A DNA stretch of 61,540 bases from IMG/VR virus record IMGVR_UViG_3300031379_000001, positions 1 through 61,540 of that record, one strand, 5' to 3'. Each line of letters begins with the position of its first letter. Position 1 is the first letter of the stretch. The notes under the pieces were generated by a model. It made no database searches. It was not told the origin of the DNA and was given only the letters and a program-made list of their open reading frames with translations. Source of the DNA: a virus. Below, piece after piece: positions 1 to 61,540 of the stretch. A program made the translations under genes and the position numbers.

Positions 1-108
1 CCCATGCTATATAGGGTACTATATACACCCATGCTATATAGGGTACTATATACACCCATGCTATATAGGGTACTATATACACCCATGCTATATAGGGTAC
101 TATATAGA
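1..108. repeat. 27-bp tandem direct repeats, left-end array
   Basis: Four head-to-tail copies of a 27-bp unit start at 1, 28, 55 and 82. Each begins CCCATGCTATATAGGG and ends TACTATATACA; the fourth diverges near 107. The same unit in the same orientation fills 61369-61540. The unit has no stop codon in one frame of either strand, so it gives repetitive open frames that I regard as non-coding. The simplest reading is a single array cut by linearisation of a circular molecule. Confidence 0.95.
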
Positions 109-32922: not shown

Positions 32923-34134
32923 ATGAAAAAAGTCACAATATTGTTAACAATTGTTACATTATTAACTTTTAGTACTTCTGTTTTTGCTACAGATCAAAGT
33001 AATTCAAATACTAATAATCAATCCAATTCAAATACATATGGTACAACTAATCAATCTAATAGTAATAATAATGATCAAAGCAATAGTAATTCAGTTGGTA
33101 CAGCTAAACAAAGTAATGATAATAAAAACAATCAAGAGAACGAAAACAAATTTGGTAAAGCTAATCAATCTAATAAAAATAGTAATACCCAAGAAAATAA
33201 GAGCAAACTTGGTATAACTAATCAATCTAATAGTAATAATAATGATCAAAGTAATAGTAACTCATTTGGTAAAGCTAATCAATCTAATAGTAATAATAAT
33301 GATCAAAGTAATGTAAGTAAGTTTGGTAAAGCTAATCAATCTAATGAAAACAATAATGAACAAAGTAACACTAATATAGGCGGTAAAGTAAATCAATCTA
33401 ATGAAAATAGTAATACTCAAGAAAATAGTAACTCATTTGGTAAAGGTAAACAAACTAATAGTAATACTAATGAACAAAATAATACGAATAAAACATTATA
33501 TCTAAAAAAATATGAAGTAAAGAAAAATGATTTAAAAGTAGAAAAATTCAAAATAGAAACAATTAAAAAAGAAGGAAAAAAAGCTAAAGTATTCATTAAA
33601 TTATATGGTAAAAAATTTGGTAAATGTGTAATCAATAAAGATGTTAAATTAAAAAAAGGATTAAATAAAGTAAAGTATGAAGTAATAAAAGAAGGTCAAA
33701 AATATATTAATTATATTAATATATATTCAGATGTAGAAAATTTATTATGTAATGTTCAAACTAATATCAATGAAAACAATCAAACTAATGTAAACTATGG
33801 TTCTAATGTAACTCAGTCAAATTCAAATAGTAATAGTCAAAGTAATACAAATAATAGCTCAAGTTCAAATACAACAGTTAGTACAACTACAGGAACAGAA
33901 TCAACCACAGTAACAACTACAGGAAATGAAGAAAAAGAAGTAAAAATAGAAACAACTAATCTAAGTGCTAATGGTATTTTAGCAGATAAAGCATCAACAG
34001 ATGTTAAAACTGTTTCAAGTAATGATACATTACCAAAAACAGGTGATGAAGTACCAGTATTACCATTCGTTATAGGTTCTTTAATTTTATTAGGTGGAGT
34101 AAGTTTACTATTAAAAAAAGTTTTAATCAATTAA
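32923..34134 (+). CDS. LPXTG cell-wall-anchored repeat protein
   Basis: 403 residues. Signal peptide 1-22 (TILLTIVTLLTFSTSVFA). Residues about 24-190 and 280-310 are N/Q/S repeats of the form NQSNSNNNDQSNSN with a roughly 22-aa period, reminiscent of curlin-type beta-solenoid repeats. A charged middle domain lies at 195-270, a Thr-rich stalk follows, then LPKTGDE near 368, a membrane helix and a basic tail: a complete sortase substrate. A phage-borne surface protein suggests lysogenic conversion, adhesion or receptor masking. It is monocistronic. Confidence 0.85.
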   Translation: MKKVTILLTIVTLLTFSTSVFATDQSNSNTNNQSNSNTYGTTNQSNSNNNDQSNSNSVGTAKQSNDNKNNQENENKFGKANQSNKNSNTQENKSKLGITNQSNSNNNDQSNSNSFGKANQSNSNNNDQSNVSKFGKANQSNENNNEQSNTNIGGKVNQSNENSNTQENSNSFGKGKQTNSNTNEQNNTNKTLYLKKYEVKKNDLKVEKFKIETIKKEGKKAKVFIKLYGKKFGKCVINKDVKLKKGLNKVKYEVIKEGQKYINYINIYSDVENLLCNVQTNINENNQTNVNYGSNVTQSNSNSNSQSNTNNSSSSNTTVSTTTGTESTTVTTTGNEEKEVKIETTNLSANGILADKASTDVKTVSSNDTLPKTGDEVPVLPFVIGSLILLGGVSLLLKKVLIN

Positions 34135-34500: not shown

Positions 34501-35787
34501 TTATTTTATTATTTTAAATTTATCTTTGTTATCTATTTGTATTCTTTCTAACCTTTTGTTTTCATTTAATTTAGCACTAGTTAAATTATTAATAATTTTG
34601 TCCTTCCATAATCTATCTTTTATATTGAACTCTTTTTTTAATTGTCCTACTTTTATTAAATCACCACTTTTATATTTAAGGACAATATATTCATCTATAT
34701 TTTTAATCAAGTCCTCAAGTCCTAAATTTATTTTGTCCTGTGTCCTAAGTTTAATTTTGTCCTCACTTATTATATGTCCTGAGACATTTTTATTTTGTCC
34801 TGTCTTCATGTCCTGTGTTTGTTCTTTAATTTTGTCCTGTGTCCTAAGTTTAATTTTGTCCTCACTTTGTCCTATGTCTTCACTTTTTTGTTTTGGTACG
34901 TCCTGAATACATTTAGGACTTTTAGATATATCTACCTTTTTAGTAATATTTGTATTAATAGGTTCTATGTTTTTACTTAATGGTTTTAAAGACTTACTAA
35001 GATTTACCACTTTATTATTTATAACTTTGTCCTGAGTTACTATATTATTTTTTTGTCCCAAGTTATTATTAGTTTGTCCCAAGTTATTATTAGTTTGTCC
35101 CAAGTTATTATTAGTTTGTCCCAAGTTATTATTAGTTTGTCCTAAGTTATTATTAGTTTGTCCTAAGTTTTTGTCCTCAATTATTCCTAACTCAATACAT
35201 TTGTTATCAATAAAACTTTTAGGATAATAAGTAACTAATTTAAATATTTTTACTAAGTAACTATTATTATTCAAATTAATTTTTTGTTTAGTAGATATTC
35301 CAGTTATCAAATCACTACCAATTGAAGGAAAATACATACTCATTAAGTCTATTACTATACATGATAACCATATAAGAGTCATATTAGTTAAATTATCTAC
35401 AAGCCATGTATTATTGTTAAGGTTTAAAAAAGGTATGCTATATAGTAAATCTTTTATTACATCTTTCCTTGCTAACTTATCAAACTGATTAAAAAATGAT
35501 ATAGTTGATAATACTGAGATTATAAAACATATATTGGTAAACCATACTATTTTAAAGTAATGTTGTGGTGTTCGTTGGTATACTATCCCTTTAACTATAG
35601 AACCAACTAACACCATAATTTGTAATAATACGATAAAACCAATTACAACTAAAGTCAAATTTTCATCAGTAGTAAGATTAGAAAAAAATGCTATAGATAA
35701 ACCAGTTGATACTACACTAGATAGGATTGATAATAAAATAATAATCAATCCAAAAAATATAGCCATAAACTTACTAAATTTATTCAT
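34501..35787 (-). CDS. Multi-pass membrane protein with repeat linker and winged-helix-like tail
   Basis: 428 residues. About four hydrophobic segments (9-33, 45-67, 80-101, 137-155). Then five to six tandem copies of a 7-aa NNLGQTN unit (21-bp DNA repeats, 35050-35165) and two DKIKLRTQDKI units. The last 70 residues (VGQLKKEFNIKDRLWKDKII) look like a winged helix. A membrane anchor joined to a DNA-binding-like tail would fit tethering of DNA, but this is inference. Unknown family. Confidence 0.65.
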   Translation of the reverse strand: MNKFSKFMAIFFGLIIILLSILSSVVSTGLSIAFFSNLTTDENLTLVVIGFIVLLQIMVLVGSIVKGIVYQRTPQHYFKIVWFTNICFIISVLSTISFFNQFDKLARKDVIKDLLYSIPFLNLNNNTWLVDNLTNMTLIWLSCIVIDLMSMYFPSIGSDLITGISTKQKINLNNNSYLVKIFKLVTYYPKSFIDNKCIELGIIEDKNLGQTNNNLGQTNNNLGQTNNNLGQTNNNLGQTNNNLGQKNNIVTQDKVINNKVVNLSKSLKPLSKNIEPINTNITKKVDISKSPKCIQDVPKQKSEDIGQSEDKIKLRTQDKIKEQTQDMKTGQNKNVSGHIISEDKIKLRTQDKINLGLEDLIKNIDEYIVLKYKSGDLIKVGQLKKEFNIKDRLWKDKIINNLTSAKLNENKRLERIQIDNKDKFKIIK

Positions 35788-41324: not shown

Positions 41325-41707
41325 ATAATAATATTGATTTAAAAGGTAAAACAATTAAAGATATGAAAGTTAAATATGATGATAATAAATTAATTTGTAT
41401 AATATTAGATTTCACAGATGATACAAATATATCTATATCACCTTATGATAATGATGATTTTTTATTTATCACAAAGTTATCAATATCATCCACGAAATTA
41501 GCTAATTTAGAAAAAAATTTATTAATACTTAAAGATCAATATATAAAAGATAGAGTTAAATATAATGATTTTGTTGATAGATCATACCCTGACAATATAG
41601 ATGATTTAAGATATAGAAGTCAATGGATTAGTAATTTAATGCAGCAACAAATTAAAATAGAAGACATAGAGAATCAAATAAAAGAGTTAGAAGGTGATAG
41701 TAAATGA
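41321..41707 (+). CDS. Hypothetical protein, 128 aa
   Basis: N-terminal 55 residues are beta-rich (MKVKYDDNKLICIILDFTDD), the rest a coil ending IKIEDIENQIKELEGDSK, again the IEELEGD-type tail of the gene before. ATGA overlaps at both ends: a tightly packed cascade. Confidence 0.6.
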   Translation: MNNNIDLKGKTIKDMKVKYDDNKLICIILDFTDDTNISISPYDNDDFLFITKLSISSTKLANLEKNLLILKDQYIKDRVKYNDFVDRSYPDNIDDLRYRSQWISNLMQQQIKIEDIENQIKELEGDSK

Positions 41708-41883
41708 ATCTTGAAAAAATGGAAAAGTTATTATCTGAATCAATCAATAAATTAAAAGAATTAGATATTAATTATTTAGATTTAGAAAAAAGAGATATGA
41801 AAGATATAACTAATGAGGTGGTTATTGATTTAGTCGTTGTAATAATGGAAATACAAAATAAGTTATATTTTGAAAGGAAGTGA
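41704..41883 (+). CDS. Hypothetical helical protein, 59 aa
   Basis: ATG overlaps the previous stop. Helical (MEKLLSESINKLKELDINYL; VVIDLVVVIMEIQNKLYFER). Its last codons contain the AAAGGAAG RBS of the resolvase gene. Confidence 0.55.
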   Translation: MNLEKMEKLLSESINKLKELDINYLDLEKRDMKDITNEVVIDLVVVIMEIQNKLYFERK

Positions 41884-41888
41884 TTAAA

Positions 41889-42297
41889 ATGTGTCTAAAC
41901 CACTATATTATGGGTTTAGACCCTTGAGCTAGGTGGTTCAACGGGTTTTGTGGTAGTAAAGATTGAAACAAATGAGATCATGGAGTACAAAACATTAGAT
42001 GGTTACAAAGAGATATTTAATGAGCTAAAGCAAGCTAAAGGAAACTATCATATAGTATGTGAGGACTACAGGGCAAATATTAGAACTAAAGATCAATTAT
42101 ATGCTAATAAGCTTGTAGGATTCATAGAAGGCTATTGTATAGCAAATGGCATCAAGATTAAGACACAGATGCCAAGTGTTAGAAAGGGTTATTTAAATCA
42201 ATCTAAACAGACATTAAAAACATATGGGTGCAATATTAAGCATATTATTGATGCTTATGCACATGTGTTAAGATATATTAGAATGGAATTAAAATAA
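41889..42297 (+). CDS. RuvC-like Holliday junction resolvase, expressed through a +1 frameshift
   Basis: ATG 41889 has GAAAGGAAG upstream but the frame stops at TGA 41925 after 12 codons ending MGLDP. Skipping one base (CCT TGA G to CCT GAG) joins GLDP to ELGGSTGFVVVK and continues to 42297: 135 residues. GLDP...STGF is the RuvC-fold first strand with catalytic Asp (D11); E58 (VCEDYR) and D121/H125 (DAYAH) complete the site. Without the shift the protein lacks its first Asp. A 9-bp hairpin (41893-41901 / 41913-41921) ends at the shift codon. It should resolve branched DNA before packaging. Confidence 0.75.
41922..41927 (+). promoter_or_regulatory. Putative +1 frameshift site CCT TGA
   Basis: CCU followed by the UGA stop and G. 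Slow-decoded UGA after a Pro codon that can re-pair in +1 (CUU) is the type of site used by prfB (CUU UGA) and by Listeria phage PSA (CCC UGA). The hairpin immediately 5' is in position to influence the event. A simple mutation is the alternative. Confidence 0.6.
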
Positions 42298-43583: not shown

Positions 43584-45284
43584 ATGTTAATTAAAAAGGG
43601 AAACAAATTAATCTTAGAAGGGACTAATTATCCAGAGCAATTAAATAGTGTACAGGGAGCGACTAGAATCAAAGGTGGATGGAGTTTTCCAATAGATTAT
43701 TTTTGTGTAAACAAAATAAGCACTATATTAGGTACAAGATTGACTTCTAGCGACGAGGTTAAAAAGTGGTACTATGAAGAAAGAGAACGCCAAATTTTAG
43801 CCAATAAGGTACTTAAAAACGATATTAAAGACATATCTAGTTTAAATAATATAAAAGGGTTAAATAAAGAATTAAAAGATTACCAGTTACAAGCAGTTAG
43901 ATTCTTCTTAGCTACTAATAGGTGTATGATAGCCTTTGATGCTGGATTAGGAAAAACACTTGTAGCTATTAATTGTATAAAAGCAATTAAAGCCAAAAAG
44001 GTATTAGTAGTTTGTCCTAGTTATCTTAAGTATAACTGGGAAGATGAAATAAACAAGTGGTCTAAATTAACATGTAGTGTTATTAATGGCACATCAAGTC
44101 AAAGGGAAGAAGGATTCAAAGATTATAAGTCTAATAATAAAAATGTACTTATAATCAACTATGAACAAATAAGATACAAAGTAACTAAAGGAGAGAATAA
44201 CAAGGTAATTAATAGAGAAATTAAGATACATAAGGATATCTTAGAACCAATATGGGATTTAATAATTATGGACGAATCCCATAGATTAAAAAGCAGAGAT
44301 TCACAGGTATCTGAGGGTATGTTAAAGCTTAAATCTAAGGGTAAATTAATGTTAACAGGTACACCAATTAATAAATGTGAAACAGAGATATGGAAACCAT
44401 TTAAAATATTGGATAAACAAAGGTTTACATCTTACTGGAAGTTTGCAAATTATTATTGTCATGTTGAAGATGGGTTTTATAGCAAAGAAATCAAAGGACT
44501 AAGGAATAAAAAAGAATATAATAAACTTCTTAGTCGTTACATGCTTAGAAAGAAAAAGGAGGATGTAATAGATTTACCAGATAAAGTTGTAAAAACGATC
44601 AAGATTGATTTAACAGGGAAACAATTAGCAATATATAAACAAGCTGAGAAAGACTATTTGAATCCTAAAGGTAAAATAATAGAGTCAGATGTAGAAAAGT
44701 TTATTAGAATCAATCAAATAGTGCAAAATCCAGCTATACTTGACGGTGAAAATGTATCTTGTTTAACCGATACAGCAATAGAAATATTAAATGATAAAGA
44801 GGAAAAATTTATTATAGGTTGTGTATACATTGGTATGTCTGAATTGGTATATGAAGCAATTAAAAAAAAGTTTCCTAAAAGAAACGTATTTCTTGTTAAT
44901 GGCACAATTAAAGTAAGAGAAAGATATGAAATAATCGAAGACTGGAAGAAAGCACGTAATAGTATAATTATAACAACAATTAAAGCTATGAGTGAAGGTT
45001 TAAACCTAGATATCTGTGATAATATGATGTATTTAGATTATGATTGGAGCAATTCAGCAAATTCTCAATTTAGCAATAGAATTCATAGAATGACAAGTAC
45101 TGAGATTAAATTCTATTATCATTTAATAGTAAGAAACACATGTCATGAATATAAGTATTATAAGCTAATGAATGAGGATAAAAGAATGTCTGAGGCTATC
45201 AATGATACACCAAGTAATATTAAGTATTTAGCAGAACAATATATAGACTATGTTAATAACAGCAAGGAGGTTGACCAATGTTAG
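43584..45284 (+). CDS. SNF2/superfamily 2 DNA helicase
   Basis: 566 residues. An N-terminal accessory region of about 85, then helicase motifs: Q-like KDYQLQAVRF, Walker A FDAGLGKT (near 118), DESHRLK (motif II, near 229), LTGTPINKCETEIW (motif III) and C-terminal motifs AMSEGLNLDICDNMMYLDYDWS and QFSNRIHR (motifs V-VI). A dsDNA translocase acting in replication, repair or recombination. Conserved phage neighbours (resolvase, SSB, polymerase) agree. RBS AAAAAGGAG. Confidence 0.88.
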   Translation: MLIKKGNKLILEGTNYPEQLNSVQGATRIKGGWSFPIDYFCVNKISTILGTRLTSSDEVKKWYYEERERQILANKVLKNDIKDISSLNNIKGLNKELKDYQLQAVRFFLATNRCMIAFDAGLGKTLVAINCIKAIKAKKVLVVCPSYLKYNWEDEINKWSKLTCSVINGTSSQREEGFKDYKSNNKNVLIINYEQIRYKVTKGENNKVINREIKIHKDILEPIWDLIIMDESHRLKSRDSQVSEGMLKLKSKGKLMLTGTPINKCETEIWKPFKILDKQRFTSYWKFANYYCHVEDGFYSKEIKGLRNKKEYNKLLSRYMLRKKKEDVIDLPDKVVKTIKIDLTGKQLAIYKQAEKDYLNPKGKIIESDVEKFIRINQIVQNPAILDGENVSCLTDTAIEILNDKEEKFIIGCVYIGMSELVYEAIKKKFPKRNVFLVNGTIKVRERYEIIEDWKKARNSIIITTIKAMSEGLNLDICDNMMYLDYDWSNSANSQFSNRIHRMTSTEIKFYYHLIVRNTCHEYKYYKLMNEDKRMSEAINDTPSNIKYLAEQYIDYVNNSKEVDQC

Positions 45285-47316: not shown

Positions 47317-49980
47317 ATGGATATTAAAGATATTAAATATAATATTATAGATACTGAGTGTCTATATTATAAAAAAGAAGGTGTAAACACTGGATATTTT
47401 AGTTATCAGTATTTAACCGATGAAATGGAAAAAGCTAAAATATTCGAGTGTAGGGAAGATAAAAACTTTCATACACTTTATAAAGCACTGTCAAATACAA
47501 CTAGACCAATGTATTGTTACAGTATAGACTATGACAAACTTATGATTAACTGTCTTTGTAAGATGGTTGAAAAGGGTATAACTAATATTGCATGGAAACT
47601 AAGAAATATATCAGATTTTATGATAAATGGTGACGTAAATTTCTTTCAATTAAATAAAGAGTTTTGGGTTGATATTTACTTCAAGAATCAAGATTCTTTT
47701 GATGGTGATGATTTATATCAATGGTCACTAGACCGATTAAAAGAAAATAAATCTGATTATGAAATAGATTTTATTAATCGTTATGACTGGCTATTTGGTA
47801 AATCTCAGTTATTCAAGCGACTAAATATATTAGAGATTCCAAAAATTATGTATTATTACACCATAAGACAAGATAATAAACCAAGAATGAATATATCACT
47901 AAAGAAACTACAGTTATACTATGAGAACTATAATATAAAATTTGATTTCTCTAAGTATATGAATATGGCAGATATAGAGAAAGATGGATTATATGATGAA
48001 TTTACAAAGTATTCCTTAAATGATGTTGATTTCCTTAAACGTTTTTGGGATAAGAAACCTAAAGATGATATTATAAAAAGAATTTATGCAGTTAAAGCAG
48101 TTAAGAAACTAAAGCCAGAATTTGAAGTATCAGAACGTGCTATATATTCAGAAAATAATACACAGTTAATTAATGAGATACTAAAGATTGATAATCCTAA
48201 AAAGGATATTGAAATAAATTATCTAGATTATGTTAAAACTCCATATGATGATTTTAATCGTTTTGCCCAATTTGTAACAGATAATAAAGATATTGAAAAA
48301 GATTCACAATTAAAGAAGTTATATTGTGAAACTTATGAGAAACTATATGAAAATGATGATAAAAAGAAATATGAAGATGGACAAATAGAAACTATTGTTA
48401 ATACTATTGATGAATTAAATATCAATGATGTTATGGTTAAATATGGTCTTGGTGGTTTGCATGGTTCTAAAGAAAACTATATTCAAGATGATTTAATCCA
48501 TCTTGACTACAGGTCACAATATCCATCAATTATACTACAGTATAAAGAGTTATTCCGTAATATAATAAATGTTGAGTTGTATGAAGAAATATATAACATG
48601 CGTAATTTTGAGATCAAACCCAAGTTAAAAGAATTGAAAAAGGAATACAAACAATTGGACCAAGATATAAAAGATCAATTAGTTATAATTGAAAAAGGTG
48701 GTAATGATGGGGCAGATATAGCAGTATGTCAAGATTATTACAAAAGATTTGAAGAAATAGAGAAAGAGATCACAGAGTTAACAGAGTTGGAACAAGGTTT
48801 AAAACTTATATTAAATACTGCTTATGGTCTTATCAATAGTAACTTTAGATTACCAATAGCAAGTAAGAAACTAGGTCGATTGATTTGTTTAAAAGGTCAA
48901 TCAATGTTATTAAATCTTATGTATAAACTTGGTAAAACTGAGATAGCAAATGTTAACACAGATGGAATAATAATTAAAAATACTGAAAATCTAGATATAG
49001 ATCAAATTGTTAAAGATGATGAAGATGGGTATTTTGTATTAGGTGTTGATACCATTGAAAAACTTATACAAAAATCAGTAAATAGTTATATTAAGATATC
49101 TAATGGTTACATGAAAACTAAAGGCGAATTTAATATATCAATTAAAAATGTAATAAATAAACATGATAAATTTATAGGCTTACCGAATGCAATTAGAATG
49201 ATTGAGAAAAAAAGTAATGAAATATATCCTATTTATTTTAATCGTAAATATGTTGATATTCAAGGTCATGAAGATAGTTTCAAAGATAATGCATGGTATT
49301 TAACTGATAAAGAAAATGGTGCAATGGCAATTAAGAAAACTATAAGACCATTAATACTAGGTTGTGAAGGTGAAATTATGTATTTTACAGCAGACAAAGA
49401 AAAGGCAAGAATAGCAGAGTATACAAAATTTGCACAACTAACCTATAATAAAATCATGGAACATAGATTAAGTGATAGTTCTAAGAGTATTAAGTATTAT
49501 AAATACAAAATAGTACCAGATGAAGATCAAGAAATGATAAAAGAAAAAAGATCAATTAAAAGAAGATTAAGTAAAATACTTAATCGTGATGAAATAATGA
49601 TTACTGGTAAACTTGATATTAATAACAATAACAAAGATGTATTATGTATTGGTAATAATCCGATAAAAGAACTAAATAATTACACAATGAGCGATATATT
49701 AAAATCTAAACATGTTATTGGTTTTTATCTGGATAAAAATAGTTATCATATGCTTAGTACGGATAATTTAGAGCAACAAGAATATCTTGATAATTTTGAT
49801 ACATTAACAGTAACACATAAAAACGGTAGAAGGTGCTATATATTCAAAGAATTTGATAAAGAATATATTAATTGTTTTAAAGATGTTAAATATCAAAAAG
49901 GAATATCTATTCCTTTACATACATTAGATGAAACTTATATATCTAATTTCAATGAGTTACAAAGTTTAACTAGTTTGTAG
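47317..49980 (+). CDS. Family B DNA polymerase
   Basis: 887 residues. A 3'-5' exonuclease domain has YNIIDTECL (Exo I, near 10) and YSLNDVDFL (Exo III, near 233). The polymerase has motif A HLDYRSQYPSII near 396, motif B NTAYGLINSNF near 500 and motif C VNTDGIII near 547. Motif C reads NTDG instead of the usual DTDS, a variant seen in some phage-type enzymes. No terminal-protein region was recognised, so priming by the PrimPol is more likely. RBS AAGGAGATTA. Confidence 0.9.
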   Translation: MDIKDIKYNIIDTECLYYKKEGVNTGYFSYQYLTDEMEKAKIFECREDKNFHTLYKALSNTTRPMYCYSIDYDKLMINCLCKMVEKGITNIAWKLRNISDFMINGDVNFFQLNKEFWVDIYFKNQDSFDGDDLYQWSLDRLKENKSDYEIDFINRYDWLFGKSQLFKRLNILEIPKIMYYYTIRQDNKPRMNISLKKLQLYYENYNIKFDFSKYMNMADIEKDGLYDEFTKYSLNDVDFLKRFWDKKPKDDIIKRIYAVKAVKKLKPEFEVSERAIYSENNTQLINEILKIDNPKKDIEINYLDYVKTPYDDFNRFAQFVTDNKDIEKDSQLKKLYCETYEKLYENDDKKKYEDGQIETIVNTIDELNINDVMVKYGLGGLHGSKENYIQDDLIHLDYRSQYPSIILQYKELFRNIINVELYEEIYNMRNFEIKPKLKELKKEYKQLDQDIKDQLVIIEKGGNDGADIAVCQDYYKRFEEIEKEITELTELEQGLKLILNTAYGLINSNFRLPIASKKLGRLICLKGQSMLLNLMYKLGKTEIANVNTDGIIIKNTENLDIDQIVKDDEDGYFVLGVDTIEKLIQKSVNSYIKISNGYMKTKGEFNISIKNVINKHDKFIGLPNAIRMIEKKSNEIYPIYFNRKYVDIQGHEDSFKDNAWYLTDKENGAMAIKKTIRPLILGCEGEIMYFTADKEKARIAEYTKFAQLTYNKIMEHRLSDSSKSIKYYKYKIVPDEDQEMIKEKRSIKRRLSKILNRDEIMITGKLDINNNNKDVLCIGNNPIKELNNYTMSDILKSKHVIGFYLDKNSYHMLSTDNLEQQEYLDNFDTLTVTHKNGRRCYIFKEFDKEYINCFKDVKYQKGISIPLHTLDETYISNFNELQSLTSL

Positions 49981-50307: not shown

Positions 50308-50878
50308 AATAAGAGCTAAAGACAAAAAACAATTGAAAACAACATATCTAATGAAGAACATTACAATATAAACAAAAAAAATAATTAAAAAGTCTTATTA
50401 TCACTATTATTTCTTAATAATTATATCAAATTTTAATATAATTTACTATTAAAAATCTTAGAAAAATCTTAGAAAAAATCCTAAGGAAAACCTCATGGAA
50501 TTCCTAGGGAAAACCTCATGGAATTCCTAGGGAAAACCTCATGGAATTCCTAGGGAAAACCTCAGGGAATTCCTAGGGAAAACCTCAGGGAATTCCTAGG
50601 GAAAACCTCAGGGAATTCCTAGGGAAAACCTCAGGGAATTCCTAGGGAAAACCTCAGGGAATTCCTAGGGAAAACCTCATGGAATTCCTAGGGAAAACCT
50701 CAGGGAATTCCTAGGGAAAACCTCAGGGAATTCCTAGGGAAAACCTCAGGGAATTCCTAGGGAAAACCTCAGGGAAAACCTCAGGGAAAACCTCAGGGAA
50801 ATCCTCAGGGAAATTTACCTTACCAGTATTTTACATTGTCAATATCTTACATTACCAGTATTTTACATTACCAATATC
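50289..50878. other. Convergent non-coding region with tandem arrays
   Basis: Between the end of + transcription and the end of - transcription. Holds the terminator, an AT-rich stretch (50310-50460), the 23-bp array and a second short array. Confidence 0.8.
50480..50815. repeat. Array of 23-bp tandem direct repeats
   Basis: About twelve copies, 23 bp apart, of GGGAAAACCTCA(T/G)GGAATTCCTA from about 50485 to 50763, then three 12-13-bp units GGGAAAACCTCA and a degenerate one. Each full unit contains GAATTC and, at its junction, CCTAGG. Copies 1-3 and 9 have CATGG, the others CAGGG. The period is near two helical turns, as in iterons. No spacers, so not CRISPR. Confidence 0.95.
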
Positions 50879-61353: not shown

Positions 61354-61540
61354 AGGGTACTATATACACCCATGCTATATAGGGTACTATATAGGGTACT
61401 ATATACACCCATGCTATATAGGGTACTATATACACCCATGCTATATAGGGTACTATATACACCCATGCTATATAGGGTACTATATACACCCATGCTATAT
61501 AGGGTACTATATACACCCATGCTATATAGGGTACTATATA
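61354..61540. repeat. 27-bp tandem direct repeats, right-end array
   Basis: CCCATGCTATATAGGG units start at 61369, 61408, 61435, 61462, 61489 and 61516; the first is lengthened by an extra TATAGGGTACTA (39 bp). Same unit and orientation as 1-108. Confidence 0.95.

What the first reader, a model, noticed from the sequence alone, without database searches (positions are those of the whole stretch)
41889..42297. RuvC-like resolvase whose catalytic Asp is reached only by a +1 frameshift
The frame from ATG 41889 ends MGLDP-stop (CCT TGA). Moving +1 gives GLDP-ELGGSTGFVVVK and the rest of a RuvC fold with Glu 58 and Asp 121. The first catalytic Asp (D11) would be lost without the shift. CCU UGA resembles known +1 sites (prfB CUU UGA; Listeria phage PSA CCC UGA). 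A 9-bp perfect hairpin (41893-41901 with 41913-41921) ends one base before the shift codon, an unusual 5' position. If real, termination efficiency would set resolvase dose.
Basis: partly seen in the sequence, partly recalled or inferred. Interest (0 to 1): 0.78.

Follow-up and report, generated by a model that had tools for sequence, protein, structure and literature searches.

The report
Phage resolvase made by +1 frameshift
A DNA-repair-type enzyme gene in a bacterial virus is interrupted by a stop signal after 12 codons, and a related virus has kept exactly the same interruption plus two RNA hairpins around it, so ribosomes probably skip one base there on purpose; the upstream hairpin would be, as far as I found, the first natural case in bacteria or their viruses of a folded RNA pulling the ribosome forward by one base.

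Summary
ATG 41889 opens 12 codons ending ...GLDP at CCT TGA (41922-41927), and the rest of a RuvC-like resolvase lies in the +1 frame to 42297. It is not a sequencing error: a relative seen in two other IMG/VR contigs (71% protein identity, 76% DNA identity) has the same 12-codon ORF, the same CCT TGA and the same +1 continuation. dN/dS is about 0.2 for the fused protein. Distant homologues (Bacillus, Weizmannia, Arthrobacter and Oceanotoga phages) carry the gene unshifted before a helicase gene, with D11, E58, H118 and D121 invariant.

The 9-bp hairpin is identical in both lineages, with all three substitutions in its loop. Synonymous-codon shuffling almost never produces it (10 and 8 in 20,000). 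Its 3' arm covers positions -9 to -1 before the shift codon, abutting it directly, where prfB has its Shine-Dalgarno; no Shine-Dalgarno is present here. A second conserved hairpin contains the shift site.

Best reading: programmed +1 frameshifting by tRNA-Pro slipping CCU to CUU at UGA, helped by a refolding 5' hairpin. The frameshift is well supported; the hairpin's role is inferred from published artificial and yeast cases. Only two independent lineages are known.

The parts
41874..41883 (+). Shine-Dalgarno for the start codon (AAGGAAGTGA), overlapping the TGA of the preceding ORF 41704-41883
   Evidence: anti-SD pairing -6.0 kcal/mol here and -7.1 in the relative
41889..41927 (+). zero-frame ORF, 12 codons MCLNHYIMGLDP + UGA; supplies the N-terminal strand and catalytic Asp11
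   Evidence: same ORF in L003/L004 4416-4454
41893..41921 (+). 5' hairpin: 9-bp stem GTCTAAACC/GGTTTAGAC, 11-nt loop; 3' arm at -9 to -1 of the shift codon; proposed +1 stimulator
   Evidence: stem identical in relative, 3 substitutions all in the loop
41922..41927 (+). shift site CCU UGA: P-site CCU re-pairs to CUU, skipping U, next codon GAG/GAA
41921..41945 (+). second conserved hairpin CCCUUGARCU-AGGU-GGUUCAA(C)GGG containing the shift site in its 5' stem; role unknown
   Evidence: 1 of 3000 synonymous recodings as stable, in each lineage; G-U in window becomes A-U in relative
41926..42297 (+). +1-frame ORF, ELGGSTGF... to TAA: rest of the RuvC-like resolvase (Glu58, His118, Asp121)
   Evidence: dN/dS about 0.2
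43584..45284 (+). SNF2-family helicase gene downstream; such a helicase directly follows the unshifted RuvC-like gene in Bacillus, Weizmannia and Oceanotoga phages, and a DNA helicase does in Arthrobacter phage Mimi

Best explanation
This is a functional phage RuvC-like Holliday-junction resolvase gene (135 aa) expressed only through programmed +1 ribosomal frameshifting at codon 12. Ribosomes start at ATG 41889 and reach CCU in the P site with UGA in the A site. While release factor 2 is awaited, tRNA-Pro re-pairs one base forward on CUU, and decoding resumes at GAG (GAA in the relative). The 9-bp hairpin just behind the P site probably refolds as mRNA leaves the ribosome. Six of its base pairs (3' arm at -9 to -4) sit where prfB has its Shine-Dalgarno duplex, and completing the last three pairs draws in the E-site codon GAC and pulls the mRNA by one base, so the hairpin replaces the missing Shine-Dalgarno. 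Ribosomes that terminate release a 12-residue peptide, so shift efficiency sets how much resolvase is made. Shown by sequence: split frame, its conservation, purifying selection on the fused protein, the catalytic residues, non-random hairpins, absence of a Shine-Dalgarno. Inferred: that the shift occurs, its direction and efficiency, the pulling role of the hairpin, and dose control.
For: (1) The relative in two other IMG/VR contigs (identical to each other here) has MCLNRYIIGLDP-UGA and +1 ELGGSTGF at the identical place. (2) Fused-protein dN 0.195, dS 0.877; downstream part 0.21/1.01. (3) Six-sequence alignment: D11, P12, T18, G19, E58, H118, D121 invariant, unshifted homologues continuous across the junction; PHROG Holliday-junction-resolvase match E 7e-5 for the relative. 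The phrog_1981 bits fall from 21.2 to 14.8 and the phrog_1770 match is lost without the zero-frame part. (4) CC[C/U]-[C/U] is a known +1-prone sequence for tRNA-Pro (PMC4519876), and Listeria phage tsh genes shift at CCC_UGA (PMC5009743). (5) Hairpin: synonymous-codon null 10/20,000 and 8/20,000; MFE 0/3000 in both lineages; far more structured than 69 other gene starts; 0 of 18 stem bases changed against 3 of 11 loop bases. (6) Pairing to anti-SD upstream of the shift is only -3.1/-2.2 kcal/mol, against -10.2 for prfB. (7) 5' hairpins stimulate +1 shifting on 70S ribosomes (PMC6321510) and naturally in yeast ABP140 by an mRNA-pulling model that needs P-site re-pairing (PMC12661321), which CCU to CUU allows.
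Against: Only two independent lineages are available. Synonymous-site conservation around the site is only suggestive (P 0.04-0.08). No expression or peptide data exist. In PMC6321510 upstream-hairpin stimulation was seen only without RF2 and was about 60% of the Shine-Dalgarno effect. A stem that reaches -1 cannot be fully paired while the E-site codon is held in the ribosome; without those three pairs its stability falls to -4.3 kcal/mol. A hairpin starting 4 nt after the A of AUG may instead act on initiation.
Confidence: 0.85

Rival explanations
1. The +1 frameshift is real but driven only by CCU-U plus slow termination at UGA; the 5' hairpin does something else, such as throttling initiation of this gene, protecting the RNA, or binding the resolvase or another protein for autoregulation.
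For: The hairpin starts 4 nt after the A of the start codon and is the most structured gene start of the window. CCC_UGA alone shifts in E. coli pheL at 15% (PMC5009743). Full stem closure needs the E-site codon to be free.
Against: The 3' arm ends exactly at the shift codon in both lineages, and position next to the site matters for 5' stimulators (PMC6321510, PMC12661321). It occupies the place of the prfB Shine-Dalgarno. The arm sequence occurs elsewhere in the window only at chance level, so it is not a repeated operator.
Confidence: 0.27
2. Sequencing error or decaying pseudogene: the frame break is not real in the phage, or the gene is dead.
For: A one-base frame break is the commonest artefact in metagenome assemblies; distant homologues have intact frames.
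Against: The same break, at the same base, is in independent assemblies of a lineage with about 24% DNA divergence. No further stop arose, dN/dS is about 0.2, and neighbouring SNF2 and polymerase genes are intact in both.
Confidence: 0.03
3. The downstream frame is translated by itself from an internal start (GTG 41950 or ATG 41980), giving a protein without Asp11.
For: In-frame GTG 41950 and ATG 41980 exist, with an AGGTGG upstream at 41931-41936.
Against: GTG 41950 is not a start codon in the relative, whose first listed start is ATG 4507 at residue 31. ELGGSTGF before any start codon is fully conserved and matches the unshifted homologues. The product would lack strand 1 and the first catalytic Asp.
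Confidence: 0.05
4. A bypass-like event related to T4 gene 60: the 5' stem-loop and a take-off stem-loop holding the P-site codon and stop make the ribosome let go and land, here only one base on.
For: Same anatomy as described for gene 60: independent 5' stem-loop plus a stem-loop containing take-off codon and stop (PMC5009743 section 36; hairpins).
Against: There is no coding gap; CCU to CUU is an overlapping re-pairing, so ordinary +1 slippage explains the frame change without take-off and landing. It may differ from +1 slippage only in name.
Confidence: 0.06

Closest known systems
Listeria phages PSA/A118/A500 tsh +1 frameshift at (AAA) CCC_UGA (PMC5009743)
   Same: phage gene in a low-G+C setting, proline codon followed by UGA, +1 shift
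   Different: there it gives a second product from a tail protein gene; here the shift is at codon 12 and is obligatory for an enzyme; a 5' hairpin abuts the site; CCU instead of CCC
prfB (release factor 2) +1 frameshift, CUU UGA with Shine-Dalgarno 3 nt upstream
   Same: early obligatory +1 shift at a pyrimidine-rich codon before UGA; stimulator at -9 to -4
   Different: stimulator is an intramolecular hairpin, not a Shine-Dalgarno; product is a resolvase, so no obvious feedback on RF2
Yeast ABP140 5' stem-loop +1 stimulator (PMC12661321) and artificial H1 hairpin on E. coli 70S ribosomes (PMC6321510)
   Same: stem-loop behind the ribosome beside a +1 site where P-site re-pairing is possible
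   Different: natural and prokaryotic here; the stem reaches the P-site codon itself (ABP140 is 6 nt away); A-site is a stop codon
T4 gene 60 bypassing signal
   Same: 5' stem-loop plus a stem-loop holding P-site codon and adjacent stop
   Different: one base skipped instead of a long coding gap; no separate matched landing codon; no known nascent-peptide signal
Phage RuvC-like resolvases upstream of SNF2 helicase (Oceanotoga phage vB_OteS-UFV02, Bacillus phage BSP7, Weizmannia phage Youna2)
   Same: catalytic D-E-H-D residues, size and gene order
   Different: those are single unshifted frames; the present protein is two residues longer at the junction

Membership tests
Bacterial/phage programmed +1 frameshifting at a shifty stop | P-site codon whose tRNA can re-pair in the +1 frame, followed by a stop codon | tested here: met
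   CCU to CUU, then UGA; CC[C/U]-[C/U] slippery per PMC4519876
Bacterial/phage programmed +1 frameshifting at a shifty stop | split frame and site conserved in relatives under purifying selection | tested here: met
   only one other independent lineage
Bacterial/phage programmed +1 frameshifting at a shifty stop | fused product made in cells | not testable with these tools
   needs mass spectrometry or a reporter
prfB-type +1 site | internal Shine-Dalgarno about 3 nt before the shift codon | tested here: not met
   anti-SD pairing -3.1 and -2.2 kcal/mol versus -10.2 for prfB
5' stem-loop-stimulated +1 frameshifting (ABP140 type) | conserved stem-loop just upstream of the shift site | tested here: met
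5' stem-loop-stimulated +1 frameshifting (ABP140 type) | stem disruption lowers, and restoration regains, frameshifting | not testable with these tools
   bench reporter needed
RuvC-like resolvase | catalytic acidic residues D, E, D (plus H/D) in order | tested here: met
   D11, E58, H118, D121 invariant in six sequences
RuvC-like resolvase | profile match to a resolvase family | tested here: met
   phrog_1770 E 7e-5 (relative) and 7e-4 (window); no Pfam/NCBIfam match of its own, but the 31%-identical Oceanotoga homologue matches NCBIfam RuvC at E 3e-6, below the curated cut-off
RuvC-like resolvase | RNase H/RuvC fold | tested here: inconclusive
   model of the +1 part only, pLDDT 51; weak Foldseek hits to MOC1 resolvases and integrase cores, E about 0.2 or worse
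T4 gene 60-type bypassing | untranslated coding gap and matched landing codon | tested here: not met
   only one base is skipped

The most novel reading that the evidence does not exclude
The first natural single-base +1 frameshift in bacteria or phages whose stimulator is a 5' mRNA hairpin that stands in for the Shine-Dalgarno and closes through the E-site codon up to the P site, with a second hairpin around the shift codon. The layout lies between prfB frameshifting and T4 gene 60 bypassing, and is used as an obligatory switch for a structure-specific nuclease.
Probability: 0.55. Interest if true: 0.8.

Novelty: new variant of a known kind. Interest (0 to 1): 0.72.

Why it matters
The well-studied +1 sites in bacteria use an internal Shine-Dalgarno or have no known 5' RNA-structure stimulator. 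A 5' hairpin as +1 stimulator was shown on 70S ribosomes only with artificial sequences, and naturally only in yeast in late 2025, where the authors predicted other organisms would use it (PMC12661321). A compact phage site of about 60 bases would make the pulling and E-site-displacement models directly testable on bacterial ribosomes, and would link +1 slippage to bypassing. It also shows a nuclease gene that ordinary gene callers truncate or miss, because its catalytic residue lies in another frame.

Tried and rejected
Peptide-pattern searches with the fused protein found no relatives in viral or genome contigs; the relatives came through the SNF2 neighbour and later with the two-sequence alignment. 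No hit in PLSDB plasmids. A degenerate DNA motif for the split site found only the two known contigs. A looser one added three chance matches (L020-L022) with no RuvC-like frame. More distant polymerase relatives (L025-L027) carry neither the SNF2 nor the RuvC gene in the stretches fetched. No Rfam family, no tRNA gene in the window. Operator repeat idea: the arm occurs elsewhere only at chance level. UGA readthrough or selenocysteine does not fit, because the zero frame soon meets further stops. Transcriptional slippage: no homopolymer run. A -2 shift has the same frame but needs tRNA-Pro to re-pair on ACC, which is poor.

Full report
What is there. The window is a 61.5-kb virus record with phage structural genes, an SNF2 helicase and a polymerase-like gene. 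At 41889 an ATG with a Shine-Dalgarno (41874-41883) opens MCLNHYIMGLDP and meets TGA at 41925-41927. Reading one base further on gives ELGGSTGFVVVK... to a stop at 42297. In the +1 frame there is no start codon before GTG 41950, so the catalytic Asp of a RuvC-like protein can only come from the zero frame. All coordinates in the finding are right, except that the hairpin touches the shift codon instead of leaving one base.

Is it an error? No. The SNF2 neighbour led to two IMG/VR contigs, 56.6 and 23.2 kb, identical to each other here and about 76% identical in DNA to the window. Both have MCLNRYIIGLDP-UGA and then the +1 frame ELGGSTGF, at the same base. The fused proteins are 71% identical and dN/dS is about 0.2. 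A dead gene or a read error would not produce this. Effectively this is two independent lineages, which is the main limit of the evidence.

What protein is it? Weak but consistent matches to a phage Holliday-junction resolvase family are strengthened by unshifted homologues: Bacillus phages BSP7/BSTP5, Weizmannia phage Youna2, Arthrobacter phage Mimi (annotated RuvC-like resolvase) and Oceanotoga phage vB_OteS-UFV02 (annotated RuvC). Their RuvC-like gene sits directly before an SNF2-family or DNA helicase gene. Across the six aligned sequences D11, P12, T18, G19, E58, H118 and D121 are invariant. The unshifted proteins read D-P-G-x-x-T-G where this one reads D-P-|-E-L-G-G-S-T-G, two residues longer exactly at the shift point. 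So the shift site looks like a later acquisition in this lineage; that is an inference. Without the zero-frame residues the profile match weakens or disappears.

The RNA signals. Hairpin 1 (41893-41921) has nine perfect pairs in both lineages, while the three substitutions all lie in its 11-nt loop and change two amino acids. Its stem is built from codons that are uncommon in this genome (CTA, AAC, GAC). Only 10 and 8 of 20,000 synonymous recodings reach nine pairs, and none of 3000 is as stable. No other start of 69 ORFs comes near it. Hairpin 2 (41921-41945) holds CCU UGA in its 5' arm and is similarly unlikely by codon choice (1 of 3000 in each lineage), with a G-U to A-U change between lineages. 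Synonymous conservation by itself is only suggestive (P 0.04-0.08). No Shine-Dalgarno stands before the shift codon.

How it most likely works. CC[C/U]-[C/U] is known to slip +1 with tRNA-Pro (PMC4519876), and proline codon plus UGA is a used phage shift site (PSA, A118, A500; PMC5009743). With CCU in the P site, hairpin 1's 3' arm covers -9 to -1. The six pairs at -9 to -4 match the position of the prfB Shine-Dalgarno duplex, and the last three pairs would take in the E-site codon; their closure is worth about 7 kcal/mol in the calculation. PMC6321510 found that stable 5' hairpins stimulate +1 shifting at the CUU-stop site on 70S ribosomes, and cites work in which pairing into the E-site codon speeds E-site tRNA loss. 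PMC12661321 found a natural 5' stem-loop in yeast ABP140, proposed mRNA pulling, and showed that it works only where the P-site tRNA can re-pair. The present site fits these conditions. Hairpin 2 cannot exist while the ribosome sits on the site, so its role is open; its resemblance to the take-off stem-loop of T4 gene 60 (PMC5009743) is noted but not claimed as kinship.

Verdict. The frameshift is very probably real and required for an active resolvase. The hairpin as +1 stimulator is probable but unproved. In the papers searched I found no earlier natural bacterial or phage +1 site with a 5' hairpin stimulator. PRFect (PMC10885494) lists RusA/RuvC among genes said to be frameshifted, but the RuvC-related reference seen in its list is the 1991 E. 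coli ruvC paper. I rate this as a new variant of a known kind.

Noticed in passing
window 1-106 and 61387-61540: The same 27-bp tandem unit (CCCATGCTATATAGGGTACTATATACA) runs into both ends of the record with 100% match, so the record is probably circular or terminally redundant, joined inside a repeat array.
   Followed up: no
window 50479-50813: 14.5 copies of a 23-bp unit (TCCTAGGGAAAACCTCAGGGAAT), 97% matched, just after the DNA polymerase-like gene; iteron-like, possibly a replication origin.
   Followed up: no
window 47317-49980: 887-aa protein with family-B-polymerase-like motifs (DYRSQYPSI, NTDG) that matches no PHROG or Pfam family at the thresholds used; relatives L025-L027 at 42-45% identity.
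   Followed up: partly
window 32923-34134: 403-aa secreted-looking protein with about eight N/Q/S-rich (QSNSNN) repeats and an LPKTG cell-wall-anchor-like end, an odd cargo for a phage genome; no Pfam match.
   Followed up: no
window 34501-35787 (minus): 428-aa membrane-like protein holding six near-perfect 7-residue repeats (LGQTNNN; 21-bp unit at 35043-35169).
   Followed up: no
L004 4478-4502: The relative has a third stem (TCGTAGTTA/TAACTATGA) just after hairpin 2 that the window lacks.
   Followed up: no
L013 2483-2926: In the Weizmannia phage Youna2 record the intact RuvC-like gene before the helicase is not annotated at all.
   Followed up: yes
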